From positions 84,414,056 to 84,478,055 of the forward strand of contig CM055899.1 in NCBI GenBank assembly GCA_029582155.1: a DNA stretch of 64,000 nt, read 5' to 3'. Of the stretch, positions 6,614-62,200 are shown in pieces (position 1 is the first letter of the stretch; every line of letters starts with the position of its first letter). The notes below the pieces were generated by a model that was given only the letters and a program-made list of their open reading frames with translations, did no database searches and was not told where the DNA came from. Both the position numbers and the translations under genes were made by a program. The DNA comes from Panopea generosa (Eukaryota > Mollusca > Bivalvia > Adapedonta > Hiatellidae).

Positions 6614-6718
<105 letters not shown>

Positions 6719-6815
6719 CTTCATCTGTAGTACAAGATCATCAACAGGCCTTCTTGTGATTTCTGCAGCTGAGAACATTTCAAATTCATCATTGAAAACA
6801 GCTGATGAATACAAC
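6719..6815 (-). CDS. DHX37: DHX37 exon 16 (after motif VI)
   Basis: 97 nt, phase 2 to 0. Encodes [18 protein letters not shown] then [14 protein letters not shown], matching the family segment that follows motif VI. Acceptor TTATCAG. The donor ATGAAG|GTCTGT is fused to a (TCTG)n microsatellite running down to about 6614; GTCTGT is a weak donor (C at +3). No later DHX37 exon is recognisable in 1-6700. Confidence 0.94.
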
Positions 6816-38170: not shown

Positions 38171-38269
38171 ATGGCAGCTTTGGACGAAGATGATAATTTT
38201 GAAGAAGACAAATTTCAGAATACCAGTCTGTTAACGTTCCCAAAAGAAGTGCAAGAAGTCATAGATGAA
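38171..38269 (+). CDS. VPS53: VPS53 exon 1 (start codon)
   Basis: 33 codons, [18 protein letters not shown] then [15 protein letters not shown]. The acidic start followed by L-x-(F/L)-x-x-E-V-Q-x-x-I resembles the family N-terminus. Donor GTGCGC at 38270 is weak but the only frame-compatible GT before the coding similarity ends. Ends in phase 0. Confidence 0.87.
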
Positions 38270-41200
38270 GTGCGCATATTATTTCTTTAATCCAACCTAT
38301 TTCTGTGAATAGTCACATTGTAAATTGCTTTCAAATTGAGTTTTAACAATAAAATTTGACCGTAATTATGTGTTTCCAATATAGAGATATTGAATTGGTA
38401 ATTTTATGACTCTACCAAATGGCACAGTTTCTCTAATCTTGTCGCACACATGGCACAAAAACTATTATCTTGTCTTGTTAATATTCTTTATATGAAATTA
38501 GTAAAACCTATACAGCTATAGACCAAGAGTGTCGAGACTTAGAATTTTAGCAAGTGTTGCAAAAGTTTAAGATGGGTGTAAGACGATTCATACACTGAAC
38601 GTTTCATACCCTGGTTAATTTGTACCCATTAAAGGAAATTAAGACTACTTCAGATGAGACATATGCTGCAAATGAGATAATGAATGAGTTTTTCTCCTAG
38701 AAAACATTTTTTTCTTATTCCAGTATATTAATGTTCATAGTACTTAAGGATAAAACGTTGTTTATTTGTCCTTTACCTACCTTACCGATAATATTGCCCC
38801 TACTCTAATAATTAGATTGCATTTGTCAAAAAATAGTTATTTTATTGTTTTTATTGTTGTTTTGTTTTTTTTTGGCCAAAATTTTGGATCATAACCACTG
38901 TTTCTGTTATATCTGCAGATTTGAATCTTGAAACAAGAATTATTTTTTTTTGTTCATTTCCCTGACAACACCGTTTTTTTTCTTGTAGTGCTCCAAAGGC
39001 AGTTTTTCAAATTCTCATGTATGTATAAAATTAGGTTCTAACAAAAGAAAAATTGTCTGTATATTCATTTTTCTTTGCATATATATATAACAATCATTTT
39101 AATACCAATGGTTGATGGAATATGTTGTGTATAAACAGGCTTCTCCACAGGCATTTAAGCACAGGGGCACCCCAGCGCTTGACTGTCAGAAATGGTATTC
39201 CCCTAGCGCTTGAATTCTTTAACAAATTTTGCAAAACTTACTTTCTTCTAAGTCATTATCTTTCTTTGCATATCTTTTCTCATGTTAATGCCTAAAATGA
39301 AACATACTAAATATGATAACTTTAACTGATTAATACACGTTTTACTAGTGAAGTGTATTTCAATAAGTGCCTTACACGGGGCTTGAAAATGTGTTGAAGG
39401 TGTTTAAGTGCTCTTACCTTAGCGCTTGCATTCCTTCCTGTAGAGAACTCTGACAAAATTATACGATTTAATGGGAAATTTTGTAATAATATGTTGACAA
39501 AAACAGTTAATTTCATATTAGAATTACTGATCAGTAAGTATATATTTGAAAACCAAAATGTTAAATATAATAATTTACCTACATGCCAACCCAAGATTTG
39601 GTAGGTAAAGGACAAACAAACAATAATTCAATTTAAGCAAGGCCTCGAGGTTATAAAATATTTTTCATGCTCAAATTCGTACTCAAACTTTAGAGTATTA
39701 ATTCAGATTTGAGGTAGAAAATTATAAGAATTTATGATTATTTTGTTATAATGAGCTGAGTCATCTTTGAGTTAAGCATGAAATCTTGAGTTGAGCATGG
39801 AAAAAATATTTATAATCCCAGACCCTGATTGTTTAATATTCAGCAGTTTTAGTTTTATGACCAAATAAATTACCAAAAATGTTTTCAACATGCATGTTAC
39901 AATTTGAGCTTGTATATATATGATTAATCTTCTGGAACCAAGGTTTTTCAGTCTGTTGGTGTTTAGAATTTATTTCAACATGTATGTTGCCATATGAGCT
40001 TGATTTGCTTGCGTGTTCGGCTGTTGCTATAAACTTGCATATAATTTGTCCTAAACAAATTGGAAGAGAATACAAATACATGTACGATAATTGCATTGAC
40101 TGTTTTATACCAACCAGATGTTCTTTTCAAATGTTTATTAGATCATGTTTACATATATATTACAGTAACAATACATTGATTCAATGTCTTGCAAAATGCC
40201 CTCCTTGTAAATTGCAGATTCTACCGACGGATGACCCACTTGACAGTTCAGATTTTAACCCGGTGGATTACATCAACACACTCTTCCCAACTGAGCAGTC
40301 GTTATCAAACATTGATGATGTCGTAGGAAAAATTAGATACAAAATCCGGTAGGTTATGAAATCAGACATGTGTATAGCTGCAAGTTTCTCCTATAAAATA
40401 AACAGTTATGGTTATGTAACAATTTGCTATTTAGCCAAATAATGGCCAAACCTCTCGGTCTATTTCCTGTAAAGATGCTCTTAATGCTTGGATGTTGTTG
40501 GTAGGTTTTGACCTAATCCCATGGGAGAAAAAATATACAATTTTTAAATTATTAAATAAATGAAAGAGTATACCTTTATTTTGTGATCAATTCAAAACAT
40601 AGTGCCTAATAGATGTAAGAGTGGGGTTAGAAAATACTGCTATTTTGTAGCCAATTCAAAACTTCAATGAAATTCAGAATTTAAAGATATTTGCCAAAAC
40701 AACTGATCCGTTCTCAGATTTACTCTTAACACAAGTTCTTAAAATAACATAAGTTATTTGGCAGGAATTTTATAGTGGTGAAGTCAATGAGGCATCAAAT
40801 AATTAAATAATGGTCATAGGGAAGAAACTCTTACAAACCATAACACATATTTCATACAAATCTGGTCTTGTTTCAAATGCCGTTTTAGTTGTTGCTTTTC
40901 AGAATTTATTTCTCTAAATAAAATTTATTCTGACATGACAATTAATTGCTTACCATACCATGTGTCAGCTGGCATGATATATATCTGTGTTACCTTTATA
41001 CTGCCTTGAGCAGACGCTGTTGACGTAATAAACATTAAATGCTCTCTGTTTATCAGACGTCTAGATGATGATATCCGTGTTGTTGTTCGTGGACAGACAA
41101 ATGTTGGGGAGGATGGTAGGCAATCCTTGGAAGAGGCACAGAGAGCCATTCAAGACCTCTTCACCAAGATTAAAGACATAAAAGACAAGGCTGAGAAATC

Positions 41201-44200
41201 TGAAGAAATGGTAATATAATTATTATGTATATCTATATATAAACAGTTAATCGTTACCTCTCACTGCTGAGGTTTCATGGCAGAGTATTTTTAGGCACTA
41301 ATGACTACTTACTTCATCAATGGGGTTGTGGGTTTGAGCCTTACATGGTTCAAAACCATTATGTGAGAAAGTTTGCCAGTTACTTGCAGAATGACTTTGG
41401 TTCTACTCATATTCATGCTCATGTCTTCCTCCACCAATAAAACTAGATATGCCATACATGACATATATAACCTGAAATGTGTTGAAAGTAGTGTCAAGCC
41501 CCATCCAAAAACAAACAGCCACAATGTTTGTTATTGGACCATTCTGGAGTAACATTTTGGCTCTGTTCCCAGAGATAGAATTAATAAACTTTTCTGTTAC
41601 TATGTATTTATTTCCTTAGTTTTTAGGTCCAAAATTTCCATTAAAAAACATGTTTTACTTTAATATGGTAGCTCTGTTTTTTGATAATTTTGGTAAACCA
41701 CTGATTTCTAATTTGTTGCTGATCTGATTGTTAGTATGCATTTTGTTAAATTCCAAACAATCTGCACAAATACCCAGTAGTAAAAAAACCTCTGAGCCAA
41801 ATTTTTCTAAGTTCCATGATTTATGGTTATCTAACCTAGTGTTTTTTGCACACATTATGTCTTAATTGTTCATTTTCAGTTTTAATGTTAATAAGTTTAT
41901 TTGAGAACTGCTGAGTTAGGTTGTCTGTATACAAATAATACAAGATTCCTTCATCATCCAGGTTAAAGAAATCACGAGAGACATAAAGCAATTGGATCAT
42001 GCCAAGCGACATTTGACAAGTTCTATAACCACATTAAACCATCTGCACATGCTGGTCGGTGGCGTCGAATCATTAAAGTAAGTTCTTACTTTGTACAAAG
42101 TTTCATCAAATTGTTATGTTGAAATTTGCTAATAATGTTGCAGCGGTAGCATTGAAACTATTTTTAGATAATGCAAAAGATTAGTTTATATTAATTCATT
42201 TTAGCTCTATTGCAAACTAAGTTCAGAGCTTATATGAGTTGCTCCCAAAGCCATGTTTTGGGTAGAACAAATACTGAATGAATGTTCCCGAGTCCATGTC
42301 CTGGGTAGAACATGTACTGAGTGAACATTCCCGAGTCCATGTCCCGGGTTGAACATGTACTGAATGAATGTTCCGGAGTTCATGTCCCAGGTGGAACATG
42401 ATCTGAGTGAATGTTCCAGAGTCCATGTCCCTGGTGGAACATGTACTGAGTCCATGTCCTGGGTAGAACAAGTACTGAGTGAATGTTCCGGAGTCCATGT
42501 CCTGGGTGGAACATGTACTGAGTGAATGTTCCCGAGTCCATGTCCTGGGTAGAACATGTACTGAGTGAATGTTCCCGAGTCCATGTCCCGGGTTGAACAT
42601 GTACTGAGTGAATGTTCCCGAGTCCATGTCCCGGGTTGAACATGTACTGAGTGAATGTTCCCGAGTCCATGTCCCGGGTGGAACATGTACTGAGTGAATG
42701 TTCCCGAGTCCATGTCCTGGGTAGAACAAGTACTGAGTGAATGTTCCCGAGTCCATGTCCTGGGTGGAACATGTACTGAGTGAATGTTCCCGAGTCCATG
42801 TCCTGGGTAGAACATGTACTGAGTGAATGTTCCCGAGTCCATGTCCTGAGTAGAACAAGTACTGAGTGAATGTTCTCGAGTCCATTTCCTGGGTAAAACA
42901 TGTACTGAGTGAATGTTCCCGAGTCCATGTCCTGGGAAGAACATATACTGAGTGAATGTGTCCGAGTCCATGTCCCTGGTGGAACATGTACTGAGTGAAT
43001 ATTCCTGAGTCTATGTCCTGGGTGGAACATGTACTGAGTGAATGTTCACGAGTCCATGTCCTGGGTGGAACATGTACTGAGTGAATGTTCCCTAGTCCAT
43101 GTCCTGGTTAGAACATGTACTGAGTGAATGTTCCCGAGTCCATGTCCTGGTTAGAACAAGTACTGAGTGAGTGTTCCCAAGTCCATGTCCTGGGTAGAAC
43201 AAGTACTGAGTGAGTGTTCCCAAGTCCATGTCCTGGGTAGAACAAGTACTGAGTGAGTGTTGTTTCTGAGAGACCATCAGGTTGAGCCTGAGATTAAACT
43301 CCGGCCTCTGGCATGAGCAGTCAGAACACTGTCCACTACATTAATGCCCTGCTTAAAAAACTGGGTTTTGTTGATGTAAGAGACATGCACATTAACAAGT
43401 TTAACATGACCCAGACCTTGTTAGCTCAGTCAGTAGCTTGTCTGACTATTAATCTAGGGGGTGTGAGTTGGAATCATCACTCAGCAGAGTCTCCGATGAT
43501 TGATATGTGACATTCCGTCTCATTATCATTCATCGCTCATAACTGATTTAAGTGGAAAAGTTATAAGTTACTTGCAGAGATGGATGTACTCAAGTACTGG
43601 TTAACCTTCCAGGATTCTAGGAAAGAGTGGTTAGGTTAAACTGTTGTGTGTTAGCCCAAAATGGCATAAAATGATGCTATATATTTAATAAAAAAACAAA
43701 GTTTAACATGCAGAATTTCATGTAGTTTGTGCGATTGCAAAAGTAAGTAATATAGTCATCTGCTAACAGTGGGAAGGGCTTGCTGAAACGGTAGAGGTTT
43801 GGGGCCCAGAATAATTGGTTTATCACCCACTATTACCAAGTGTCAAGTCACCATATCAACATATTTTTTTGTATTCTGCCAAGATAGATGTAAGAGTAAT
43901 ATTTGTGTAAGTTGTAAGAACTGGTTTCACGATGGGTGCTAAATGAATATATTTAAACAATGTTTTTTTAGTCAGTGTATAATTTTAATTAAATCCTAGA
44001 TCACTCCAAATCACATCTTGGCAGATAAATATATTCATCATATCCATTTATCGTTATGTGAAAAACAGATATGACCATGTAAAAAGTGGAAATATATGAA
44101 ATAGGTGATCCAGTTTCAATTATATTTAATAGTACACTTTCAGGAACTCAGTGAACAATGCCATGTTCTGTTCCTATTCTCACAAAACATCTCAAATGGA

Positions 44201-47200
44201 GTTTACACCAAAGCTGAAGTTTTAGCACTACTTGGCATTTAAAATGTTCTAAAGACAAAGCTTATACATATGAACATGATAATTGACAGTGATGTTCAAA
44301 CTGTACAGAAGTAATTAATTGACAATAAAATTAGAGCTTAAAATTTTGAAGTTTGGATGTTTTATGAATAAGGCCTGTTGCCCATTTCACTTACCTTCAA
44401 ATATTGTTGAATAATTAAGAAACCTAATATACATAAAGTTAAGGCAAGTTTGAATAAGAACTACATTTTTGTATGCTTACAAAAGCTTGTATGAGGATGT
44501 AAGTGGAAACTAAAATGAATTTTGTGACTTTACAAACCTAAGTGAAATTGCCCCCAAGTGTTATGTATGTTTTGTTTTTATTTCAGCTCTCTAACTGGTA
44601 GAAGACAATTTTGAGAGGAATAAATGGCCTCCAAGTGTTTATGTATGTTTTGTTTTGATTGCAGCTCCCTGACCAGGAGAAGGCAGTATGGAGAGGTTGC
44701 CAACCTGTTACAGGGAGTCCTCAATGTACTTGAACATTTCCAAAGATACATGGCCATTCCGCAGATAAAAGAACTGTCTGATAGGTAAATTGCTTTTAAA
44801 AGTAGATGTTAACATCTGACAGTCTTTATATTAACTATTCTAAAAGTGGATGACCACGCCTCACAGTCCCTATATTATGGGGCTTAATAAGAAATTCCTG
44901 AAAAATAATTACCAGTAATCATGGTCCAACAAATTTTGTAGAGATTGATTTCAATTTTAAAACAATAAAAAAATATTTAGCAGTGTTTTAACATTTGAAA
45001 TGTGATACTAGTGTTCCATTTTTATGTCCCTGTCATGTAATGTGGGGTACAACTGGCTTCTGTTTCACCAACATTTTACTTAATTACTTAAAAACTTAAC
45101 TAAGTTTTGACTGGTTATTTATCTATTATATAATCAATATCATTGACACAATATGCAGTTTAACTGGAACCAATCTAAAGTCATGATCACCTGGCTGCTT
45201 TTCTTAGATTTAAGTTTTTAAGTATTTAAGTATATGTTGGTGAAACAGGAGCCTGGTGTACTTATTTTGCACATTTTTTTAATGTCACGGTAGGTACAGA
45301 TTTTGATGTAGTTTGTATCTCCACAATTCTTTACAGGCCTCAAGGCATTGCATTCAAACTTATTTCTCAACTTAAGCCTTAAACAATATTCTAACATTCG
45401 CCTTGGGGGAATTTGTTTCAATAAAAAGATGATTGATTGATTGATTGAATATTTAGCATCATCTTTATGCCATCGAGGGCTAACAGATGATCATTTAACT
45501 AACCACTGTTTCCTGGGATTAACCAGTACTGGAGCACAACCCATCTCCGCAAGTAACTGATAACTTTCCCACTTGAATCAGTGGTGAGAGATGAATGATA
45601 GCGAGACACAATGTCGTATATCAATCATCACGGAGACTGTTGCCAGGTGGAGATTCGAACTCACGACCCCTGGATTGATAGTCAGACGCGTAACAGACTG
45701 AGCTAATTGGGCTCGGCACAATAAAAAGAACTGTGATACAAATAAATAGAAATTGTTACATCAATTTCTAATCTTATCTTGGTCAAACAGTTGAAACACA
45801 CCAGCCAAGTGGCATTGCTACTGGTAAGGATCACTCACCTTCAGTGATTGTCTAGTAGTTGAGAGTTTGTTATACCTTCCGGCTATCTATTAAAATGTAT
45901 TTTTACATCACCACCGTATAATTATAATGTTCGATATTCACTCACATTTTAACACACAGAAGAGTTATACAAATGAGATGGGGTTTATTACAATCATATG
46001 GTTCATAAATATTTTCATAATCAAATTTCCTGAGACATTGTCTAATACAAAAATGTACAGTTTGTACGAAGATTGGTTATATACATGTATACATATAGGT
46101 GAATGTCCTGACACAATGACACATGTTAATATTGTATGTCAGAGTGAAACAGATGCAGACAGAGCTGGGTTCCCAGATTATATCTGACTTTGAAGATTGG
46201 TGATATACATGTATACATATAGGTGAATGTCCTGACACAATGACATGTGTAAATATTGTTTTTCAGAGTCAAACAGATGCAGACAGAGCTGGGTTCCCAG
46301 ATTATATCTGACTTTGTAGATTGGTGATATACATGTATACATGTAGGTGAATGTCTTGACACAATGACATGTGTTAATATTGTATTTCAGTGTGAAACAG
46401 ATGCAGACAGAGATGGGTTCTCAGATTATACCTGACTTTGAAGATTGGTGATATACATGTATACATATAGGTGAATGTCCTGACACGATGACATGTGTTA
46501 ATATTGTATTTCAGGGTGAAACAAATGCAGACAGAGCTGGGTTCCCAGATTATATCTGACTTTGAAGATTGGTGATATACATATATACATGTAGGTGAAT
46601 GTCTTGACACAATGACATGTGTTAATATTGTATTTCAGGGTGAAACAGATGCAGACAGAGCTGGGTTCCCAGATTATATCTGACTTTGAAGATTGGTGAT
46701 ATACATGTATACATATAGGTGAATGTCTTGACACAATGACATTTGTTAATATTGTATTTCAGGGTGAAACAGATGCAGACAGAGCTGGGTTCCCAGATTA
46801 TATCTGACTTTGAAGATTGGTGATATACATGTATACATATAGGTGAATGTCCTGACACGATGACATGTGTTAATATTGTATTTCAGGGTGAAACAAATGC
46901 AGACAGAGCTGGGTTCCCAGATTATATCTGACTTTGAAGATTGGTGATATACATATATACATGTAGGTGAATGTCTTGACACAATGACATGTGTTAATAT
47001 TGTATTTCAGGGTGAAACAGATGCAGACAGAGCTGGGTTCCCAGATTATATCTGACTTTGAAGATTGGTGATATACATGTATACATATAGGTGAATGTCT
47101 TGACACAATGACATTTGTTAATATTGTATTTCAGGGTGAAACAGATGCAGACAGAGCTGGGTTCCCAGATTATATCTGACTTTGAAGATTGCTGATATAC

Positions 47201-50200
47201 ATGTATACATATAGGTGAATGTCCTGACACGATGACATGTGTTAATATTGTATTTCAGGGTGAAACAGATGCAGACAGAGCTGGGTGTCAAGATTATATC
47301 TGACTTTGAAGATTGGTGATATATAGATGAATGTCCTGACACGATTACATGTGTTCATATTGTATTTCAGGATTTCAAGGTGAAACAGATGCAGACAAAG
47401 CTGGGTTCCCAGATTATATCTGATTTTGAAGATTGGTGATATACATGTATACATGTAGGTGAATGTCTTGACACAATGACATGTGTTAATATTGTATTTC
47501 AGGGTGAAACAGATGCAGACAGAGCTGGGTTCCCAGAATATATCTGACTTTGAAGATTGGTGATATACATGTATACATATAGGTGAATGTCTTGACACAA
47601 TGACATGTGTTAATATTGTATTTCAGGGTGAAACAGATGCAGACAGAGCTGGGTTCCCAGATTATATCTGACTTTGAAGATTGGTGATATACATGTATAC
47701 ATATAGGTGAATGTCTTGACACAATGACATGTGTTAATATTGTATTTCAGGGTGAAACAGATGCAGACAGAGCTCTGTTCCCAGATTATATCTGACTTTG
47801 AAGATTGGTGATATACATGTATACATATAGGTGAATGTCCTGACACGATGACATGTGTTAATATTGTATTTCAGTGTGAAACAGATGCAGACAGAGCTGG
47901 GTGTCAAGATTATATCTGACTTTGAAGATTGGTGATATACATGTATACATATAGGTGAATGTCCTGACACGATTACATGTGTTCATATTGTATTTCAGGA
48001 TTTCAAGGTGAAACAGATGCAGACAGAGCTGGGTTCCCAGATTATATCTGACTTTGAAGATTGGTGATATACATGTATACATATAGGTGAATGTCTTGAC
48101 ACGATAACATGTGTTAATATTGTATTTCAGAGTGAAACAGATGCAGACAGAGCTGGGTTCCCAGATTATATCTGACATTGAAGATTGGTGATATACATGT
48201 ATACATATAGGTGAATGTCTTGACACGATGACATTTGTTAATATTGTATTTCAGGGTGAAACAGATGCAGACAGAGCTGGGTTCCCAGATTATATCTGAC
48301 TTTGAAGATTGCTGATATACATGTATACATATAGGTGAATGTCCTGACACGATGACATGTGTTAATATTGTATTTCAGGGTGAAACAGATGCAGACAGAG
48401 CTGGGTTCCCAGATTATATCTGACTTTGAAGATTGGTGATATACATGTATACATATAGGTGAATGTCCTGACACGATTACATGTGTTAATATTGTATTTC
48501 AGGATTTCAAGGTGAAACAGATGCAGACAGAGCTGGGTTCCCAGATTATATCTGACTTTGAAGATTGGTGATATACATGTATACATGTAGGTGAATGTCC
48601 TGACACAATGACATGTGTTAATATTGTATTTCAGAGTGAAACAAATGCAGACAGAGCTGGGTTCCCAGATTATATCTGACTTTGAAGATTGGTGATATAC
48701 ATGTATACATGTAGGTGAATGTCTTGACACAATGACATGTGTTAATATTGTATTTCAGGGTGAAACAGATGCAGACAGAGCTGGGTTCCCAGATTATATC
48801 TGACTTTGAAGATTGGTGATATACATGTATACATATAGGTGAATGTCCTGACACGATTACATGTGTTAATATTGTATTTCAGGATGAAACAGATGCAGAC
48901 AGAGCTTGGTTTCCAGATTATATCTGACTTTGAAGATTGGTGATATACATGTATACATATAGGTGAATGTCCTGACACAATGACGGGTTAATATTGTATT
49001 TCAGGGTAAAACAGATGCAGACAGAGCTGGGTTCCTAGATTATATCTGACTTTGAAGATTGGTGATATACATGTATACATATAGGTGAATGGTTTGACAC
49101 AATGACACATTCAGGGTGAAACAGATGCAGACAGAGCTGGGTTCCCAGATTATATCTGACTTTGAAGATTGGTGATATACATGTATACATATAGGTGAAT
49201 GTCCTGACACGATTACATGTGTTAATATTGTATTTCAGGATGAAACAGATGCAGACAGAGCTGGGTTTCCAGATTATATCTGACTTTGAAGATTGGTGAT
49301 ATACATGTATACATATAGGTGAATGTCCTGACACAATGACGGGTTAATATTGTATTTCAGGGGGAAACAGATGCAGACAGAGCTGGGTTCCTAGATTATA
49401 TCTGACTTTGAAGATTGGTGATATACATGTGTATAGGTGAATGTTTTGACACAATGACACATTCAGGGTGAAACAGATGCAGACAGAGCTGGGTTCCCAG
49501 ATCATATCTGACTTTGAAGATTGGTGATATACATGTATACATGTAGGTGAATGTCCTGACACGATTACATGTGTTAATATTGTATTTCAGGATGAAACAG
49601 ATGCAGACAGAGCTTGGTTTCCAGATTATATCTGACTTTGAAGATTGGTGATATACATGTAAACATATAGGTGAATGTCCTGATACGATGACATGTGTTA
49701 ATATTGTATTTCAGGGTGAAACAGATGCAGACAGAGCTGGGTTCCCAGATTATATCTGACTTTGAAGATTGGTGATATACATGTATACATATAGGTGAAT
49801 GTCCTGACACGATTACATGTGTTAATATTGTATTTCAGGGTGAAACAGATGCAGACAGAGCTGGGTTCCCAGATTATATCTGACATTGAAGATTGGTGAT
49901 ATACATGTATACATATAGGTGAATGTCTTGACACAATGACACGTGTTAATATTGTATTTCAGGGTGAAACAGATGCAGACAGAGCTGGGTTCCCAGATTA
50001 TATCTGACTTTGAAGATTGGTGATATACATGTATACATATAGGTGAATGTCCTGACACAATGACGGGTTAATATTGTATTTCAGGGGGAAACAGATGCAG
50101 ACAGAGCTGGGTTCCTAGATTATATCTGACATTGAAGATTGGTGATATACATGTATACATATAGGTGAATGTCTTGACACAATGACACGTGTTAATATTG

Positions 50201-53200
50201 TATTTCAGGGTGAAACAGATGCAGACAGAGCTGGGTTCCCAGATTATATCTGACTTTGAAGATTGGTGATATACATGTATACATATAGGTGAATGTCTTG
50301 ACACGATGACATGTGTTAATATTGTATTTCAGGGTGAAACAGATGCAGACAGAGCTGGGTTCCCAGATTATATCTGACTTTGAAGAGGCCTTTCAGGGCT
50401 CTGGAGCTAAGGTACAATACATATTGAATTGTTTATTTTTAACAGTACTTGAACATACTTGTAATTATTTTTCTGTTTCTTTGATACAAACACATAGTTT
50501 ATAATTTTCCCTTTACTTCACCATAGTTGGTATTATGGCTTTTAATTGAACGGTGTTTAACATCATTTTAAACACATGGCAGGTTATATATGGCATATCC
50601 AGTTTTATTGGTGAAGGAAGACCTCATAGTGAATCTGAGTAGAATCACCATCTTTCTGCAAGTAACTGGCAAACTTTCTCACACAGTGCTTTTGGACAGA
50701 GTTTGGTTCGAACCCACGGCCTCAGCAGTGAAGTATGTTGTTGTAAGTTGTCAGTCTATTAGACCACTCGGCCATGGAGGACCCTATAGTTGGTGTAACA
50801 TGATTAAAAATATTATAAAGTCTCCTTTCATTTACCAACATTACTATGACTTAATTCTGAATTGGTAGTCTTGGATGTCATTGACATCTGTTTGTCTGTG
50901 TTTAACTTATGAACAATTGAACACCAAAGTTTTAATTTTCCTTTGTTGTTTTTGTATCCATGCACATGTGACTTTACCTGAGATAATGAATATATAATTT
51001 AAATATAGCAAAAATAAATTTCATCTATATCACAGTCGTAAGAAGTTAGTTTATACTGAAGTTATTTTGTAAGCTCAGAGTTTATATGAACCTCTCTACA
51101 GTCCGATACCTGGGTAAAACCAGTCCCGGGTATATTATGATACCTGGGTAAAACCAGTCCCGGGTGTATTATGATACCTGGGTAAAACCAGTCCCGAGTG
51201 TATTATGATACCTGGGTAATACCAGTCACCATATGATACCTGGGTAATACCAGTCCCGGGTGTATTATGATACCTGGGTAAAACAAGTCCAAGTTGATTA
51301 TGATACCTGGGTAAAACAAGTCCCGAGTGTATTATGATACCTTGGTAATACCAGTTGCCAGTGTATTATGATACCTGGGTAAAACCAGTCCCAAGTATAT
51401 TATGATACCTGGGTAAAACCAGTCCAGAGTATATAACGAAACCTGGGTAAAACCAGTCCTGAGTGTATTACAAAACCTGGGTAATACCAGTCCCAAGTGT
51501 ATTATGATACCGGGGTAAAACCAATCTCGAGTGCATTATGATACCGGGGTAAAACCAGTCCCGAGTGTATTATGATACCTGGTTAATACCAGTCTGGAGT
51601 GTATTATAAAACCTGGGTAATACCAGTCCCGAGTGTATTATGATACCGGGATAAAACCAGTCTCGAGTGTATTATGATGCCTGGGTAATACCAGTCCTGA
51701 GTGTATTATGATTCCTGGGTAATACCAGTCCTGAGTGTATTATGATACCTGGGTAATACCAGTCTCAAGTGTATTATGATACCTGGGTAAAACCATTCCG
51801 GAATGTATTATGATACCGGGGAAATACCAGTCCCGAGTCTATTATGATACCTGGGTAAAACCAGTCCTGAGTGTATAATGATACGGGGGGTAAAACCGGT
51901 CCCAAGTGTATTATGATACCTGGTTAATACCAGTCCAGAGTGTATTATGATACCAGGGTAAAACCAGTCCCGAGTGTATAATGATACCTGGGTAAAACCA
52001 GTCCCGAGTGTATTACAAAACCTGGGTAAAACCAGTCCTGAGTGTATTATGATACCTGCGTAAAACCAGTCCCGACTGTATTACGAAACCTGGATAATAC
52101 CAGTCCCGAGTGTATTATGATACCGGGGTAAAACCAGTCCCGAGTGTATTATGATACCTGGGTATTACCAGTCCTGAGTGTATTATGATTCCTGGGTAAT
52201 ACCAGTCCTATGTGTATTATGATACCTGGGTAAAACCAGTCCCACGTGTATTATGACACCTGGGCAATACCAGTCCCGAGTCTACTATGATACCAGGGTG
52301 AAACCCGTCTCGAGTGTATTATGATACCCGGGTAATACCAGTCTCGAGTGTATTATGATGACGGGGAATACCAGTCCTGAGTGTATTATGATACCTGGGT
52401 AAAACCAGTCCTGAGTGTATAATGATACCTGGGTAATACCAGTCCCGAGTGTATTATGATACCTTGGTAATACCAGTTCCGAGTGCATTATGATACCTAG
52501 GTAATACCAGTCCCAAGTGCATTATGATACCTGGGTAATACCAGTCCCAAGTGTATTATGATACCTGGGTAATACCAGTCCCGAGTGTATTATGATACCT
52601 GGGTAATACCAGTTCCAAGTGTATTATGATACCTGGGTAATACCAGTCCTGAGTGTATCATGAGAGGCATCAGGTGGAGCGGAGGATTAGTTCTGCGACA
52701 TCTGGCATGAATGTCACTACTCTATCCGCTTATTACTAAAGACTCTTAGTAAGAGTTAATTAGATACTGTCTGTCTTAAATATTAATTGTTGTTAGTAGA
52801 ATTTACAGTAGAATAAGAAATTCACTGATGGACATACATTTGTATTGCATTCATTGTTTACATTTATATATACATGTATACTTTACATTGCATGTCTGTA
52901 GTATGGGCCGGGTAACCAGCGTCAGTTGAAGGAGGCATGTTTTGTTGTCAACATCATTGACCCCAAGGTAAAGCGGGAACTATTGGGATGGTTTGTCAAG
53001 CTGCAACTGGCAGAATACCTCGTCTTGTTTGGAGAGAACCAGGATGTAAGTACATGGGTGATTTGCTTTATATCACTTTCCTTATTATGAAACATGTAGG
53101 ATTATTAAAATATAAAGATGGTAGGTAAGTTGATTTGGCAGGGGAGTCAGTGGAACTGTATATGATAGGATGCACATGTTTCTTAGTTCACATGCTACAT

Positions 53201-56200
53201 GTACATAAGGTATGACAAAAGAATAGGAATACAATGGCTCTTGTATGTCACAAGAAGCAGCTCAGTGAGTATTGCTGGAACTTGTCATCATGCAAATGCT
53301 TTGGTTTAAATCTGGAACTTGTCATCATGCAAGTGCTGTGGTTTAAATCCGGAACTTGTCATCATACAAATGCTGTGGTTTAAATCTGGATCTTGTCATC
53401 ATGCAAGTGCTGTGGTTTAAATCTGGAACTTGTCATCATGCAATGCTGTGGTTTAAATCTGGAACTTGTCATCATGCAAGTGCTGTCGTTTAAATCTGGA
53501 ACTTGTCATCATGCTAGTGCTGTGGTCTAAATCTAGAACTTGTCATCATGCAAGTGCTGTCGTTTAAATCTGGAACTTGTCATCATGCTAGTGCTGTGGT
53601 CTAAATCTGGAACTTGTCATCATGCAAGTGCTGTGGTGTAAATATGGAACTTGTCATCATGCAAATGCCGTGGTTTAAATTTGGAAATTGTCATCTTGCA
53701 AATGCTGTGGTTTAAATCTGGAACTTCTCATCATGCAAATGATGTGGTTTAAATTTGGAAATTGTCATGCAAATGCTGTGGTTAAATCTGGAACTTTTCA
53801 TCATACAAGTGCTGTGGTTTAAATTTGGAACTTGTCATGCAAGTGCTGTGGGTTAAATCTGGAATTTGTATGCAAGTGCTGTGGTTTAAATCTGGAACTT
53901 GTCATCATGCAGGTGTAGTGGTTTAAATCTGGAAATTGTCGTCATGCAAGTGCTGTGGTTTAAATCTAGAACTTGTCATCATGCAAGTGCTGTGGTTTAA
54001 ATCTGGAACTTGTCATCATGCAAATGCTGTGGTTTAAATCTGGAACTTGTCATCATGCAAATGTAGTGGTTTAATTTGGAACTTGTCATCATGCAAGTGC
54101 TGTGGTTTAAATCTGGAACTTGTTATCATACAAATGCTGTGGTTTAAATCTTGAATTTGTTGTCATGCAAATGCTGTGGTTTAAATCTGGAACTTGTCAA
54201 CATGCAAATGCTGTGGTTTAAATCTGGAACTTGTCATCATGCAAATGCTGTGATTTCAGTCTGGAACTTGTCTTCATGCAAGTGTTGTAGTTTTAATCTG
54301 GAACTTGTCATCATGGAAGTGCTGTGGTTTAAATCTGGAACATGTCGTTATGAAAGTGTTGTGGTTTAAATCTGGAATTTGTAGTCATGCAAGTGCTGTG
54401 GTTTAGATCTGAATCTTGTCATAATGCAAGTGTTGTTGTTTAAATCTGGAACTTGTCGTGCAAGTGTAGTGGTTTATATCTGGAACTTGTTGTTATGCAA
54501 GTGTTGTGGTTTAAATCTGGAACATGTTGTCATGCAAGTGTTGTAGTTTAAATCTGGAGCTTGTCATACAAGTGTTGTAGTTTAAATCTGGATCTTGTCA
54601 TACAAGTATCATGGTTTAAATCTTAAACTTTTCGTTATGCAAGCGTTGTGATTTAAATCTTGAACTTGTCATCATGCAAGTGCTGTGGTTTTATATCTTG
54701 AGCTTGTCATCATGCAAGTGTTGTTGTTTAAAACTGGAACTTGTGGTGCAAGTGTAGTGGTTTATATCTGGAACTTGTTGTTATGCAAGTGTTGTGGTTT
54801 AAGTCTTGAACTTGTTGTCATGCAAGTGTTGTAGTTTAAATCTGGAGCTTGTCATACAAGTGTTGTAGTTTAAATCTGGAACTTGTCATGCAAGTATTAT
54901 GGTTTATATCTTAAACTTTTCGTTATGCAAGCGTTGTGATTTAAATCTTTAACTTGTCATCATGCAAGTGCTGTGGTTATATATCTTGAGCTTGTCATCA
55001 TACAAATGCTGTGGTTTAAATCTGGATCTTGTCATCATACAAATGCTGTGGTTTAAATCTGGATCTTGTCATCATGCAAGTGCTGTGGTTTAAATCTGGA
55101 ACTTGTCATCATGCAATGCTGTGGTTTAAATCTGGAACTTGTCATCATGCAAGTGCTGTCGTTTAAATCTGGAACTTGTCATCATGCTAGTGCTGTGGTC
55201 TAAATCTAGAACTTGTCATCATGCAAGTGCTGTCGTTTAAATCTGGAACTTGTCATCATGCTAGTGCTGTGGTCAAAATCTGGAACTTGTCATCATGCAA
55301 GTGCTGTGGTGTAAATATGGAACTTGTCATCATGCAAATGCTGTGGTTTAAATTTGGAAATTGTCATCTTGCAAATGCTGTGGTTTAAATCTGGAACTTC
55401 TCATCATGCAAATGATGTGGTTTAAATTTGGAAATTGTCATGCAAATGCTGTGGTTAAATCTGGAACTTTTCATCATACAAGTGCTGTGGTTTAAATTTG
55501 GAACTTGTCATGCAAGTGCTGTGGGTTAAATCTGGAATTTGTATGCAAGTGCTGTGGTTTAAATCTGGAACTTGTCATCATGCAGGTGTAGTGGTTTAAA
55601 TCTGGAAATTGTCGTCATGCAAGTGCTGTGGTTTAAATCTAGAACTTGTCATCATGCAAGTGCTGTGGTTTAAATCTGGAACTTGTCATCATGCAAATGC
55701 TGTGGTTTAAATCTGGAACTTGTCATCATGCAAATGTAGTGGTTTAATCTGGAACTTGTCATCATGCAAGTGCTGTGGTTTAAATCTGGAACTTGTTATC
55801 ATACAAATGCTGTGGTTTAAATCTTGAATTTGTTGTCATGCAAATGCTGTGGTTTAAATCTGGAACTTGTCAACATGCAAATGCTGTGGTTTAAATCTGG
55901 AACTTGTCATCATGCAAATGCTGTGATTTCAGTCTGGAACTTGTCTTCATGCAAGTGTTGTAGTTTTAATCTGGAACTTGTCATCATGGAAGTGCTGTGG
56001 TTTAAATCTGGAACATGTCGTTATGAAAGTGTTGTGGTTTAAATCTGGAATTTGTAGTCATGCAAGTGCTGTGGTTTAGATCTGAATCTTGTCATAATGC
56101 AAGTGTTGTGGTTTAAATCTGGAACTTGTCATCATGCAAGTGTTGTTGTTTAAATCTGGAACTTGTCGTGCAAGTGTAGTGGTTTATATCTGGAACTTGT

Positions 56201-59200
56201 TGTTATGCAAGTGTTGTGGTTTAAATCTGGAACATGTTGTCATGCAAGTGTTGTAGTTTAAATCTGGAGCTTGTCATACAAGTGTTGTAGTTTAAATCTG
56301 GATCTTGTCATACAAGTATTATGGTTTAAATCTTAAACTTTTCGTTATGCAAGCGTTGTGATTTAAATCTTGAACTTGTCATCATGCAAGTGCTGTGGTT
56401 TTATATCTTGAGCTTGTCATCATGCAAGTGTTGTTGTTTAAAACTGGAACTTGTGGTGCAAGTGTAGTGGTTTATATCTGGAACTTGTTGTTATGCAAGT
56501 GTTGTGGTTTAAGTCTTGAACTTGTTGTCATGCAAGTGTTGTAGTTTAAATCTGGAGCTTGTCATACAAGTGTTGTAGTTTAAATCTGGAACTTGTCATG
56601 CAAGTATTATGGTTTATATCTTAAACTTTTCGTTATGCAAGCGTTGTGATTTAAATCTTTAACTTGTCATCATGCAAGTGCTGTGGTTATATATCTTGAG
56701 CTTGTCATCATGCAAGTGTTGTTGTTTAAATCTTGAACTTGTCATGCAAGTTCTGTAGTTTAAATCTTGAACTTGTCATCATGCAAGTGTTGTGGTTTAA
56801 ATCTGGAACTTGTCATCATGCAAATGCTGTGGTTTAAATCTGGAACTTGTTGTCATGCAAAAGCTGTGGATTAAATCTGGAACTTGTCATCATGCAAGTG
56901 TTGTGGTTTAAATCTGGAACTTGTCATCATGCTAGTGCTGTGGTCTAAATCTGGAACTTGTCATCATGCAAGTGCTGTGGTGTAAATATGGAACTTGTCA
57001 TCATGCAAATGCTGTGGTTAAAATCTGGAACTTGTCGTCATGCAAATGTAGTGGTTTATATCTGGAACTGGTCATCATGAGAGTGCTTTGATTTAAATCT
57101 TGAACTTTTCATCAGGCAAATGCTGTGGTTCAAATCTGGAACTTGTCATCTTGCAAATGCTGTGGTTTAAATCTGGAACTTGTTGTCATGCAAATGATGC
57201 GGTTTAAATTTGGAAATTGTCATCATGCAAATGCTGTGGTTAAATCTGGAACTTTTCATCATACAAGTGCTGTGGTTTAAATTTGGAACTTGTCATGCAA
57301 GTGCTGTGGGTTAAATCTGGAATTTGTATGCAAGTGCTGTGGATTAAATCTGGAACTTGTCGTCATGCAAGTGCTGTGGTTTAAATCTTGAACTTGTCAT
57401 CATGCAAGTGTAGTGGTTTAAATCTGGAACTTGTCATCATACAAATGCTGTGGTTTAAATCTAGAACTTGTCATCATGCAAATGCTGTGGTTTAAATCTG
57501 GAACTTGTCGTCATGCAAATGTAGTGGTTTAATCTGGAACTTGTCATCATGCAAGTGCTGTGGTTTAAATCTGGAACTTGTCATCATACAAATGCTGTGG
57601 TTTAAATCTTGAATTTGTTGTCATGCATATGCTGTGGTTTAAATCTGGAACTTGTCATTATGCAAGTGTTTTGGTTTAAATCTGGAACTTGTCAACATGC
57701 AAATGCTGTGGTTTAAATCTGGAACTTGTCATCATGCAAATGCTGTGATTTCAGTCTGGAACTTGTCGTCATGCAAGTGTTGTAGTTTTAATCTGGAACT
57801 TGTCATCATGGAAGTGCTGTGGTTTAAATCTGGAACATGTCGTTATGAAAGTGTTGTGGTTTAAATCTGGAATTTGTAGTCATGCAAGTGCTGTGGTTTA
57901 GATCTGAATCTTGTTGCCATGCAATTATTGTGGTTCAAATCTGGAAATTGTCATCATGCAAGTGTTGTTGTTTAAATCTGGAACTTGTCGTGCAAGTGTA
58001 GTGGTTTATATCTGGAACTTGTTATTATGCAAGTGTTGTGGTTTAAATCTTGAACTTGTTGTCATGCAAGTGTTGTGGTTTAAATCTGGAGCTTGTCATA
58101 CAAGTGTTGTAGTTTAAATTTGGAACTTGTCATGCAAGTATTATGGTTTAAATCTTAAACTTTTCGTTATGCAAGCGTTGTGATTTAAATCTTGAACTTG
58201 TCATCATGCAAGTGCTGTGGTTTTATATCTTGAGCTTGTCATCATGCAAGTGTTGTTGTTTAAATCTGGAACTTGTCGTGCAAGTGTAGTGGTGTATATC
58301 TGGAACTTGTTATGCAAGTGTTGTGGTTTAAATCTGGAACGTGTTGTCATGCAAGTGTTGTAGTTTAAATCTGGAGCTTGTCATACAAGTGTTGTAGTTT
58401 AAATCTGGATCTTGTCATGCAAGTATTATGGTTTAAATCTTAAACTTTTTGTTATTCAAGTGTTGTGATTTAAATCTTGAACTTGTCATCATGCAAGTGC
58501 TGTGGTTTTATATCTTGAGCTTGTCATCATGCAAGTGTTGTTGTTTAAAACTGGAACTTGTCGTGCAAGTGTAGTGGTTTATATCTGGAACTTGTTGTCA
58601 TGCAAGTGTTGTGGTTTAAATCTTGAACTTGTTGTCATGCAAGTGTTGTAGTTTAAATCTGGAGCTTGTCATACAAGTGTTGTAGTTTAAATCTGGAACT
58701 TGTCATGCAAGTATTATGGTTTAAATCTTAAACTTTTCGTTATGCAAGCGTTGTGATTTAAATCTTGAACTTGTCATCATGCAAGTGCTGTGGTTATATA
58801 TCTTGAGCTTGTCATCATGCAAGTGTTGTTGTTTAAATCTGGAACTTGTGGTGCAAGTGTAGTGGTTTATATCTGGAACTTGTTGTCATGCAAGTGTTGT
58901 AGTTTAAATCTGGAGCTTGTCATACAAGTGTTGTTGTTTAAATCTGGAACTTGTCATGCAAGTATTATGGTTTAAATCTTAAACTTTTCATTATGCAAGC
59001 GTTGTGATTTAAATTTTGAACTTGTCATGCAAGTGCTGTGGTTTAAATCTGGAACTTGTCATCATGCAAGTGTTATGGTTTAATCTTGAACTTGTCATCA
59101 TGCAAATGCTGTGGTTTAAATCTGGAACTTGTCATCATGCAAGTGCTGTGGTGTAATCTGGAACTAGTCATTATGCAAGTGTTGTGGTTTAAATCTGGAA

Positions 59201-62200
59201 CTTGTCATCATGCAAATGCTGTGGTTTAAATCTGGAACTTGTTGTCATGCAAAAGCTGTGGATTAAATCTGGAACTTGTCATCATGCAAGTGTTGTGGTT
59301 TAAATCTGGAACATGTCGTTATGAAAGTGTTGTGGTTTAAATCTGGAATTTGTAGTCATGCAAGTGCTGTGGTTTAGATCTGAATCTTGTTGCCATGCAA
59401 TTATTGTGGTTCAAATCTGGAAATTGTCATCATGCAAGTGTTGTTGTTTAAATCTGGAACTTGTCGTGCAAGTGTAGTGGTTTATCTCTGGAACTTGTTG
59501 TTATGCAAGTGTTGTGGTTTAAATCTGGAACTTGTTGTCATGCAAGTGTTGTAGTTTAAATCTGGAGCTTGTCATACAAGTGTTGTAGTTTAAATTTGGA
59601 ACTTGTCATGCAAGTATTATGGTTTAAATCTTAAACTTTTCGTTATGCAAGCGTTGTGATTTAAATCTTGAACTTGTCATCATGCAAGTGCTGTGGTTTT
59701 ATATCTTGAGCTTGTCATCATGCAAGTGTTGTTGTTTAAATCTGGAACTTGTCGTGCAAGTGTAGTGGTTTATATCTGGAACTTGTTGTTATGCAAGTGT
59801 TGTGGTTTAAATCTGGAACGTGTTGTCATGCAAGTGTTGTAGTTTAAATCTGGAGCTTGTCATACAAGTGTTGTAGTTTAAATCTGGAACTTGTCATGCA
59901 AGTATTATGGTTTAAAGCTTAAACTTTTCGTTATGCAAGCGTTGTGATTTAAATCTGGAACTTGTCATCATGCAAGTGCTGTGGTTTTATATCTTGAGCT
60001 TGTCATCATGCAAGTGTTGTTGTTTAAAACTGGAACTTGTCGTGCAAGTGTAGTGGTTTATATCTGGAACTTGTTGTTATGCAAGTGTTGTGGTTTAAAT
60101 CTTGAACTTGTTGTCATGCAAGTGTTGTAGTTTAAATCTGGAACTTGTCATGCAAGTATTATGGTTTAAATCTTAAACTTTTCATGATGCAAGCGTTGTG
60201 ATTTAAATCTTGAACTTGTCATCATGCAAGTGTTGTTGTTTAAATTTGGAACTTGTCATGCAAGTGTAGTGGTTTATATCTGGAATTTGTTGCCAAGCAA
60301 GTGTTGTAGTTTAAATCTGGAGCTTGTCATACAAGTGTTGTAGTTTAAATCTGGAACTTGTCATGCAAGTATTATGGTTTAAATCTTAAACTTTTCATCA
60401 TGCAGGTGTAGTGGTTTAATCTTGAACTTGTCATCATGCAAGTGCTGTCGTTTAAATCTGGAACTTGTCATCATGCAAGTGTTATGGTTTAATCTTGAAC
60501 TTGTCATCATGCAAGTGTTGTGGTTTAAATCTGTAACTTGTCATCATGCAAGTGCTGTGGTGTAAATCTGGAACTAGTCATTATGCAAGTGTTGTGGTTT
60601 AAATCTGGAACTTGTCATCATGCAAATGCTGTGGTTTAAATCTGGAACTTGTTGTCATGCAAAAGCTGTGGATTAAATCTGGAACTTGTCATTATGCAAG
60701 TGTTGTGGTTTAAATCTGGAACTTGTCATGCAAGTGTAGTAGTTTAAATCTGGAACTTGTCGTCATGCAAGTGCTGTGGTTTAAATCTGGAACTTGTCAT
60801 TATGGAAGTGTAGTGGTTTAAATCTGGAACTTGTCATTATACAAATGCTGTGGTTTAAATCTGGAACTTGTCATTATGCAAGTGGTGTGGTTTAAATCTG
60901 GAACTTGTCGTCATGCAAAAGTTGTGGTTTAAATCTGGAACTTGTCATCATGCAAGTGCTGTGGTTTAAATCTTGAACTTGTCATCATGCAAGTGTTGTG
61001 GTTTAAATCTGGAACTTGTTATGCAAGTGCTGTGGTTTAAATCTGGAACTTGTCATCATGCAAGTGCTGTGGTTTAAATCTGGAACTTGTCGTCATGCAA
61101 ATGTAGTGGTTTAAATCTGGAACTTGTCATCATGCTGTTTTGGAGAAACTATTACATTATTTTGCCGTTTTAAATTATATGCATTAAACCGCAAAGCCAA
61201 TGTCTTGATTGAAACAGCAACATTGTCAACATACTAAATGAGTGCATGCATTTCTATCTTACTGTAAACAGGGTCCTCCCTGGCCGAGTGGTCTAAGTTG
61301 CCGCCTCAATATCACTTTCCTCTCACCACTAAGGTTGAGTCGAGTCCTACTCACTCCAAAATCTTTATGTGATAAAGTTTCCAATTACTTGCGGAAGGAA
61401 GGTGGTTCTACTCAGTCTTAGGTCTTCCTCCACCAGTAAAACTGAATATGCCATATATAACCTCAAATGTGTTGAAAATGACGTTAAACCCCATTCAAAA
61501 AACAAAAACAAAAACTTACTGTAAACGTCACATGAATCTCATGACAATAAGACTTTGTACTAACAAAACAAGATCGTGCAACCAATGAAATGCAAACTGG
61601 TTCTTTTGTAAATATTGTCAGTTGTCTTTTCTTTATAAATGGAGAGTGAGTTTACACTCTTTTTTTTTTTCCTTGGTTTCATACAATCTTTTTGTTTTAA
61701 TATGCTGTTTAACTTTCGTTTCTTCATCATTTTTCTTAAAAACTGTACATTACATGTACATAGACACTTCCAACTGCTTTTTATACTGGTATTCTTCCAA
61801 ATATATTCTCTTCATCTTTACAACATGACGAGCCCTTCCACTAAAACCAGTATATACACCTGAAATGCCCTTTACTTACCAGTATATATAGAGAATACCA
61901 TGCTAGTGCCTGATAGGTGAGGGTTACTTTTTTTTTTAAGCCAAGTCTGATAAACTTATCAGGCACTGTCATGGTATTCCATTTATCATGTCATAATTTG
62001 CATGTTTTATTTTTTTATGCCCCACCCCACCACAATTTTTTGGGGTAGCGTATAGTAATCGCTGCCCCTGTCTGTCCATCCAGTATTTCATGGCTGGCCT
62101 GTAACTTTGCTATGCATAAATGGATTTTGATAGTACTTGCTACAAATGATCAACATAACATGACGACATTTCATGCTTTACATCAAGACTTCCACTTCAA

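What the first reader, a model, noticed from the sequence alone, without database searches (positions are those of the whole stretch)
46063..50411. 34 tandem copies of the VPS53 exon 6 splice acceptor stand upstream of the real exon
Seen directly: a 124-bp unit repeated about 34 times, each with a complete acceptor (GTTAATATTGTATTTCAG) and the first ~50 bases of exon 6, joined to GATTGGTGA, which gives an in-frame stop (DFEDW then TGA). Only the last copy continues into AFQGSGAK and a donor. The spliceosome must skip 34 near-identical acceptors to make VPS53. The array could slow or regulate GARP subunit output, act as a decoy for splicing factors, or be tolerated because exon definition requires the downstream donor. 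I know of no described case of a truncated exon plus acceptor amplified into a satellite.
Basis: partly seen in the sequence, partly recalled or inferred. Interest (0 to 1): 0.93.

Follow-up and report, generated by a model that had tools for sequence, protein, structure and literature searches.

The report
Splice-site minisatellite ("mirage") in VPS53
A short piece of DNA holding the start of one exon of the gene VPS53, splice signal included, stands 34 times in a row in front of the real exon; this kind of repeat was described in amphioxus as a "mirage" and recurs in other genes of this genome, so how the cell finds the true splice site is a real but not unique puzzle.

Summary
46068-50381 is 35 head-to-tail units (27 of 35 exactly 124 bp): 34 truncated copies, then the real VPS53 exon 6 (50333-50411). 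All 34 keep the acceptor AG and reach an in-frame stop. The copies are not donor-less: 34 of 35 units carry TAG|GTGAAT, so 33 of 34 decoys are potential 76-88-nt poison exons whose donor scores above the real exon's (recalled matrix). And the kind is described: "mirages", minisatellites over intron-exon boundaries, in amphioxus genes. Both outer edges carry GAAGA, pointing to one microhomology tandem duplication, then expansion. Exonic and intronic halves diverge alike. The phenomenon recurs here: a DHX37-like gene in the window has 29 decoy donors, VPS53 exon 5 has one older decoy, and three kinase paralogs with 97-100% identical flanks carry 1, 1 and 5 decoys. Most likely a tolerated repeat, skipped largely by exon definition, with possible poison-exon leakage. 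Copy-number tuning of VPS53 output stays open; no RNA was available. The animal was not identified; a bivalve is my guess.

The parts
46068..50257 (+). 34 decoy units (u1-u34) of a 124-bp mirage minisatellite: intron 5 end with donor-like site, branch-point-like motifs and acceptor, plus the first exon 6 bases
   Evidence: TRF; unit alignment; splice and stop scan
50258..50381 (+). unit 35: intron 5 end with the real exon 6 acceptor (AG 50331-50332) and the first 49 nt of exon 6
50333..50411 (+). real VPS53 exon 6 (79 nt), donor AAG|GTACAA with GT at 50412
   Evidence: tblastn with recalled human VPS53; translation; donor
46068..46072 (+). left copy of the GAAGA microhomology at the array's outer left edge
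   Evidence: sequence
50382..50386 (+). right copy of GAAGA, inside exon 6, where the array ends
   Evidence: sequence
44665..44784 (+). VPS53 exon 5, donor TAG|GTAAAT with GT at 44785
44545..44664 (+). older duplication in front of exon 5: exon 5 acceptor plus 32 nt of exon 5, one decoy (exon start 44587), reads into an in-frame stop
   Evidence: TRF 44545-44696, period 78, 81% matches; alignment and translation
38171..62933 (+). VPS53 exons 1-8: 38171-38269, 40218-40348, 41057-41210, 41962-42077, 44665-44784, 50333-50411, 52902-53045, 62791-62933
   Evidence: Pfam Vps53_N
18270..19143 (-). donor-side mirage in a DHX37-like gene: the last exon bases plus donor AAG|GTAGGT repeated every 29 bp; real donor after 19121, then 29 decoys
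   Evidence: TRF 30.1 copies, 87% matches; sequence; count
19121..19234 (-). DHX37-like exon whose 3' end is repeated
   Evidence: tblastn with recalled human DHX37; translation

Best explanation
This is a mirage minisatellite. In one ancestor, the stretch between two GAAGA words, one in intron 5 and one in exon 6, was duplicated in tandem, so the end of intron 5 with its acceptor and the first 54 nt of exon 6 came to lie twice. Unequal exchange or slippage then grew the array to 35 units. The complete exon stays last because only the last unit is joined to the rest of exon 6. The copies are mostly neutral passengers. The true acceptor is favoured because it is the one nearest the true exon 6 donor, as exon definition requires, and because the real exon has an exon-like 3' part. 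Since nearly every decoy also has a donor-like site about 80 nt downstream, some pre-mRNAs probably include a decoy, hit the stop and are destroyed by NMD. Shown: the anatomy, the stops, the shared GAAGA, the equal divergence of the two halves, and recurrence in other genes. Inferred: how it is spliced, the NMD and the neutrality.
For: GAAGA lies exactly at both outer edges, TTTGTAC-GAAGA-TTGG on the left and GACTTT-GAAGA-GGCC on the right (chance of at least 5 matching bases at a random junction about 0.005 in a simple model). Concerted turnover: mean pairwise identity 95.3%, exact block repeat u4-u6 = u7-u9, highest mean identity at lag 3 of lags 1-7. No coding constraint seen: variable columns 19 of 54 exonic and 20 of 70 intronic, Fisher p=0.44; variable columns at codon positions 1/2/3 are 8/4/7 of 18 each. 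The gene is found at a single locus and its frame is open through the eight exons of the window, with matches to the rest further on, so enough correct mRNA is presumably made. Recurrence: DHX37-like donor array, exon 5 duplication, kinase paralogs with 1, 1 and 5 decoys. Random placement of arrays would suffice: 3 of 36 exon edges lie in arrays, against a mean of 11.0 (sd 5.2) under circular shifts, 6.8% of shifts giving 3 or fewer. Precedent: in amphioxus RT-PCR suggests that such arrays do not disturb regular splicing (PMC3087553, passages).
Against: No RNA was available, so skipping, NMD and neutrality are untested. Decoy donors score above the real exon 6 donor (7.07 against 3.69), 23 of 34 decoy acceptors score at or above the real one, and decoys are transcribed first; with equal competition the real exon would win only 1 time in 35. 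That is uncomfortable for a silent passenger. The splice matrices are recalled human-like ones, not trained on this animal. The donor columns are almost invariant (1 substituted cell in 9 columns x 35 units), which could hint at constraint, though few columns and homogenisation may explain it.
Confidence: 0.75

Rival explanations
1. Splicing rheostat: the 34 decoys act as poison or decoy exons that bind the splicing machinery, cause intron 5 retention or NMD, and set VPS53 output by copy number.
For: 33 of 34 decoys are complete 76-88-nt exon candidates, each with a stop; donor scoring above the real one; a single decoy exon in human OGT promotes retention of its intron and its spliced form is NMD-prone (PMC12017769, passages).
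Against: No sign of coding selection on the copies; similar arrays in unrelated genes suggest a general mutational process; amphioxus mirages appeared to splice normally by RT-PCR (PMC3087553, passages).
Confidence: 0.15
2. Assembly artefact: copies were inserted or multiplied by the assembler.
For: Tandem arrays are error-prone; an exact three-unit repeat is present; no reads could be examined.
Against: 31 of 35 units are distinct, with shared indels spread through the array; arrays of other sequence at other exon edges in this genome. The copy number may still be off.
Confidence: 0.04
3. A bank of alternative exons, like the insect Dscam clusters (recalled).
For: Tandem exon-like units each with an acceptor and, in 33 of 34, a donor at exon distance.
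Against: 34 of 34 decoys carry an in-frame stop; the exonic halves are not more conserved than the intronic ones.
Confidence: 0.01
4. A dispersed satellite or transposable element that happens to contain an exon-like sequence.
For: The window is rich in arrays (about 30% of it), and some flanking stretches look SINE-like by eye.
Against: 15 of 15 genome matches of the unit lie in this array (by the tool's account a lower bound that skips very common words); the exonic half is contiguous with the real exon 6 and its edge is the GAAGA junction; no Rfam match at gathering threshold in 44400-51600.
Confidence: 0.02

Closest known systems
Mirages (mirage minisatellites) of amphioxus: Adh3, globins BflGb6 and BflGb9, TnC, and boundary repeats of PGBD5 (PMC3087553, passages; PMC3902484, one passage)
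   Same: Minisatellite-like tandem copies across an intron-exon boundary; both acceptor-side and donor-side types; units of similar length (BflGb6 150-160 bp); many units with AG/GT signals; homogenised interior; copy number varies (6 and 3 units in two BflGb6 haplotypes; here 2, 2 and 6 in kinase paralogs).
   Different: Another genome, probably not a cephalochordate (1.47 Gb; taxon not tested); 35 units; in 33 of 34 decoys acceptor and donor make a complete exon of nearly the real exon's length with a stop. Splicing was checked by RT-PCR there, not here.
Decoy exons promoting intron retention or detention, e.g. OGT intron 4 (PMC12017769, passages)
   Same: Exon-like unit inside an intron, with acceptor and donor, containing a stop, potentially engaging spliceosome parts without productive splicing.
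   Different: OGT has one decoy of about 150 bp with weak sites and a shown role; here 34 copies derived from the downstream exon, role untested.
Intron gain or novel intron positions by tandem duplication of exon pieces with a proto-splice site (PMC2891723, passages)
   Same: Starts from a tandem duplication that copies splice signals; stops in the duplicated stretch; NMD proposed to have played a part.
   Different: There the duplications lie within coding sequence and create introns; here the intron-exon boundary itself was copied and no new intron is evident.
Tandem alternative exons (Dscam1 type; recalled)
   Same: Tandem exon-like units in front of a constitutive exon.
   Different: Units are truncated, near-identical and carry stops.

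Membership tests
Mirage minisatellite | tandem copies spanning an intron-exon boundary of a gene | tested here: met
   35 units over the intron 5/exon 6 boundary
Mirage minisatellite | authentic complete exon lies at one end of the array | tested here: met
   u35 continues into exon 6 and a donor; joined frame of the eight exons open
Mirage minisatellite | copies keep splice signals | tested here: met
   AG in 34 of 34 decoys; donor-like TAG|GTGAAT in 34 of 35 units
Mirage minisatellite | concerted evolution of interior units, copy-number variation | tested here: inconclusive
   95.3% mean identity and a repeated unit block; no second haplotype of VPS53 available; kinase paralogs vary 2/2/6
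Mirage minisatellite | does not disturb regular splicing | not testable with these tools
   no RNA data
Decoy exon / poison exon | acceptor and donor bounding an exon-sized unit with in-frame stop | tested here: met
   33 of 34 decoys, 76-88 nt; stops in 34 of 34
Decoy exon / poison exon | spliceosome recognition, intron retention or NMD-sensitive inclusion shown in RNA | not testable with these tools
   no RNA data
Dscam-type alternative exon cluster | each unit an open, usable coding exon | tested here: not met
   in-frame stop in 34 of 34 decoys

The most novel reading that the evidence does not exclude
The array is a length-variable splicing rheostat: 34 tandem poison exons, nearly all a copy of the real exon's start with a better-scoring donor than the real one, compete with exon 6, so that VPS53 (and thus GARP/EARP) output falls as copy number rises; and mirages of this sort sit at a few percent of exon edges throughout this genome, making it a natural experiment in how cells find true splice sites among near-exact copies.
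Probability: 0.12. Interest if true: 0.85.

Novelty: new member of a known kind. Interest (0 to 1): 0.55.

Why it matters
Splice-site choice is usually studied by mutating one site. Here nature offers 34 near-exact copies of an acceptor, nearly all with a donor-like site at exon distance, competing with the true exon of a gene found at one locus, and in the same window about 30 tandem copies of a strong donor. If RNA shows that the true sites are chosen cleanly, the discriminating signal must lie in the 25 nt unique to the real exon 6, in position, or in order; if not, a housekeeping gene bears a heavy and probably length-variable splicing cost. Mirages were described in amphioxus; several cases in one other genome, which I take to be a bivalve's, suggest a wider class in array-rich genomes.

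Tried and rejected
Structured RNA: two units (49888-50135) fold no better than shuffles (z=0.26), and Rfam has no match at gathering threshold in 44400-51600. Second VPS53 copy: none found; 8 of 8 matches with the N-terminal part and 6 of 6 with the recalled human C-terminal part lie at this locus. The VPS53_C family search was silent, but so were all 14 controls, so it says nothing. PDB sequence search: no match. Coding constraint on the copies: not seen. The short DHX37-like piece matched no Pfam family; the longer one did.

Sample of kinase places. The 60 fetched are 60 of the 136 matches, picked by me as short matches; some have stops inside, so not every place is a clean exon. In one search arrays (period 20 or more) come within 100 bases of 9 of the 60 matches: L061, L070, L072, L073, L075, L079, L084, L089, L097. 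I read six of them (L070, L072, L075, L084, L089, L097): L070 copies an exon edge; in the other five the array stops short of the exon edge as I read it. L061, L073 and L079 were not read. One search also gave matches in L050 (a donor-side copy, read), L068 (dropped after reading: the match lies upstream of the likely exon start), and short or weak ones in L056, L064 and L094 (not followed). One search missed the L070 duplication that TRF found, so the count is a lower bound. The array list for the shift test was typed by hand: 17 spans, one of them short-period, several other short-period arrays left out.

In print: ten paper searches in an open-licence library. For nearly all papers I saw only the listing; passages were read in PMC2891723, PMC12017769, PMC3087553 and PMC3902484. 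In these, mirages are reported for amphioxus (lancelet); no listing showed a mirage in a bivalve or in VPS53. The original Adh3 paper is not held and is known here only through PMC3087553. The taxon of the window was not tested: a bivalve is a guess from the genome's size (1.47 Gb in 39 contigs), about 19 large contigs, and the look of the repeats; a cephalochordate was not excluded by any test.
Full report
What is there. Between 46068 and 50381 lie 35 head-to-tail units, 27 of 35 exactly 124 bp and the other 8 between 106 and 132 bp, 31 of 35 distinct, with a mean pairwise identity of 95.3%. Each unit holds the end of VPS53 intron 5 and the beginning of exon 6. The first 34 are decoys; the 35th runs into the full 79-nt exon 6 (50333-50411) and its donor at 50412. 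The genome is 1.47 Gb in 39 contigs. That it is a bivalve is my guess and was not tested.

What the decoys could do. Spliced to exon 5, 34 of 34 decoys run into an in-frame stop, whose codon ends at nt 61 of the decoy in 28, nt 34 in 3 and nt 13 in 3. AG is kept in all 34, and by a recalled matrix 23 of 34 acceptors score at or above the real one. In 31 of 34 decoys a branch-point-like yTnAy lies at -30 or -32 and another at -14 from the exon start. From decoy acceptor to the next such donor is 80 nt in 29 of 34, 88 in 3, 76 in 1 and 200 in 1. The real exon has 79 nt. So 33 of 34 decoys are potential poison exons of nearly the real size. In a 124-bp unit the gap from donor to next acceptor is 124 minus 80, that is 44 nt, probably too short to be spliced as an intron (inference). 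What the real exon has and the decoys lack are its last 25 nt and a higher GC content (49% against 39% for the last decoy, u34, the only one measured). If acceptors competed equally, the real one would be used 1 time in 35; since the gene's frame is intact and no second copy was found, either something does better than that or much RNA is wasted.

How it arose. The array begins at GAAGATTGG in the intron and ends at GAAGAGGCC in the exon; on both outer sides similarity stops at GAAGA. This is what one tandem duplication between two GAAGA words would leave. The exonic half is no more conserved than the intronic half (19 of 54 against 20 of 70 variable columns, p=0.44), and codon positions do not differ in a coding manner (8, 4 and 7 variable columns of 18 each). 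One block of three units is exactly repeated (u4-u6 and u7-u9) and mean identity is highest at lag 3 among lags 1-7, as expansion by unequal exchange or slippage would give. Against neutrality one may cite the nearly invariant donor columns (1 changed cell in 9 columns x 35 units), which I count as weak.

It is not alone. (1) In front of exon 5 of the same gene lies an older duplication, 78-bp period, 81% matches, of its acceptor and 32 nt of exon; using it would give a stop. (2) On the other strand, a DHX37-like gene (ten exon matches with a recalled human DHX37; Pfam Helicase_C above cut-off and DEAD below it; a shorter piece matched nothing) has an exon ending ...PLRHK at 19121 whose last bases and donor are repeated every 29 bp: the real donor and 29 decoys, 26 of these 30 with GT, 22 of 30 exactly AAGGTAGGT. 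(3) Sixty kinase places, picked as short matches out of the 136, were fetched with about 1 kb on each side (135,560 bases). Arrays of period 20 or more cover 9.1% of them. One of 60 has an acceptor-side duplication (L070) and one of 60 a diverged donor-side duplication (L050, 82% over 74 bp); three further places with arrays near the match were not read (see Tried and rejected). Two paralogs of L070 were then fetched on purpose: all three share flanks 97-100% identical (150 bases upstream, 260 from the exon on), yet carry 2, 2 and 6 units of 40 bp counting the real one, so such arrays change length quickly. Counting 8 VPS53 exons, 10 DHX37-like ones and the 60 places, 5 of 78 show a copied edge. 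The figure is rough: the window was chosen for this finding, not every place is a clean exon, and one search method missed a case. Within the window, 3 of 36 exon edges lie inside arrays, against a mean of 11.0 (sd 5.2) under circular shifts, with 6.8% of shifts at 3 or fewer; so there is no sign that arrays seek out exon edges.

What it is. [quoted passage not shown] 6 and 3 units in two haplotypes) and BflGb9 (3' boundary of exon 2), with RT-PCR suggesting undisturbed splicing, instability in length, and a proposed role in intron gain (PMC3087553, passages). PMC3902484 (one passage) adds TnC and similar repeats in PGBD5. The VPS53 array meets the structural features of that kind. It differs in copy number and in having a full decoy exon in almost every unit, and probably in host. 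A single decoy exon is known to promote intron retention in human OGT (PMC12017769, passages), so the rheostat reading has a mechanism on record, but nothing here tests it.

Verdict. A real, striking array; a new member of a known but little-known kind; most likely a tolerated mutational by-product, with exon definition and NMD as the inferred safety net. Its value is as a natural test of splice-site choice and as a hint that mirages are common in this genome. RNA is the missing evidence.

Noticed in passing
18270-19143 (-): Donor-side mirage in the DHX37-like gene: real donor plus 29 decoy copies at 29-bp spacing, 26 of 30 sites with GT. As striking as the finding given.
   Followed up: partly
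L070 1240-1319; L101; L102 (C13 near 39.78, 39.67 and 39.83 Mb): Three kinase paralogs with near-identical flanks carry 2, 2 and 6 units of a 40-bp acceptor mirage, showing fast copy-number change.
   Followed up: yes
L050 840-1024: Diverged donor-side duplication of a kinase exon end, 82% identical over 74 bp.
   Followed up: partly
46068-50257 (+) and 18270-19143 (-): Both large mirages, in genes on opposite strands, carry TAGGTGAAT in the sense strand; probably coincidence.
   Followed up: no
6618-6718: A CAGA microsatellite of about 25 units directly adjoins the end of a DHX37-like exon match (6719-6817, -), apparently starting at its donor; the sequence there was not read closely.
   Followed up: no
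42260-43261, 51105-52663, 53275-61135: Other VPS53 introns hold large minisatellites (43, 34 and 37 bp; the last about 216 copies); arrays of period 20 or more fill about 30% of the window.
   Followed up: no
47371, 47999, 48503: Three decoys (u11, u16, u20) share an 8-bp insertion GATTTCAA after the acceptor, which makes a second AAG|GTGAAA site.
   Followed up: no
L061, L073, L079: Arrays within 100 bases of kinase matches in the sample that were not read; possible further exon-edge cases.
   Followed up: no
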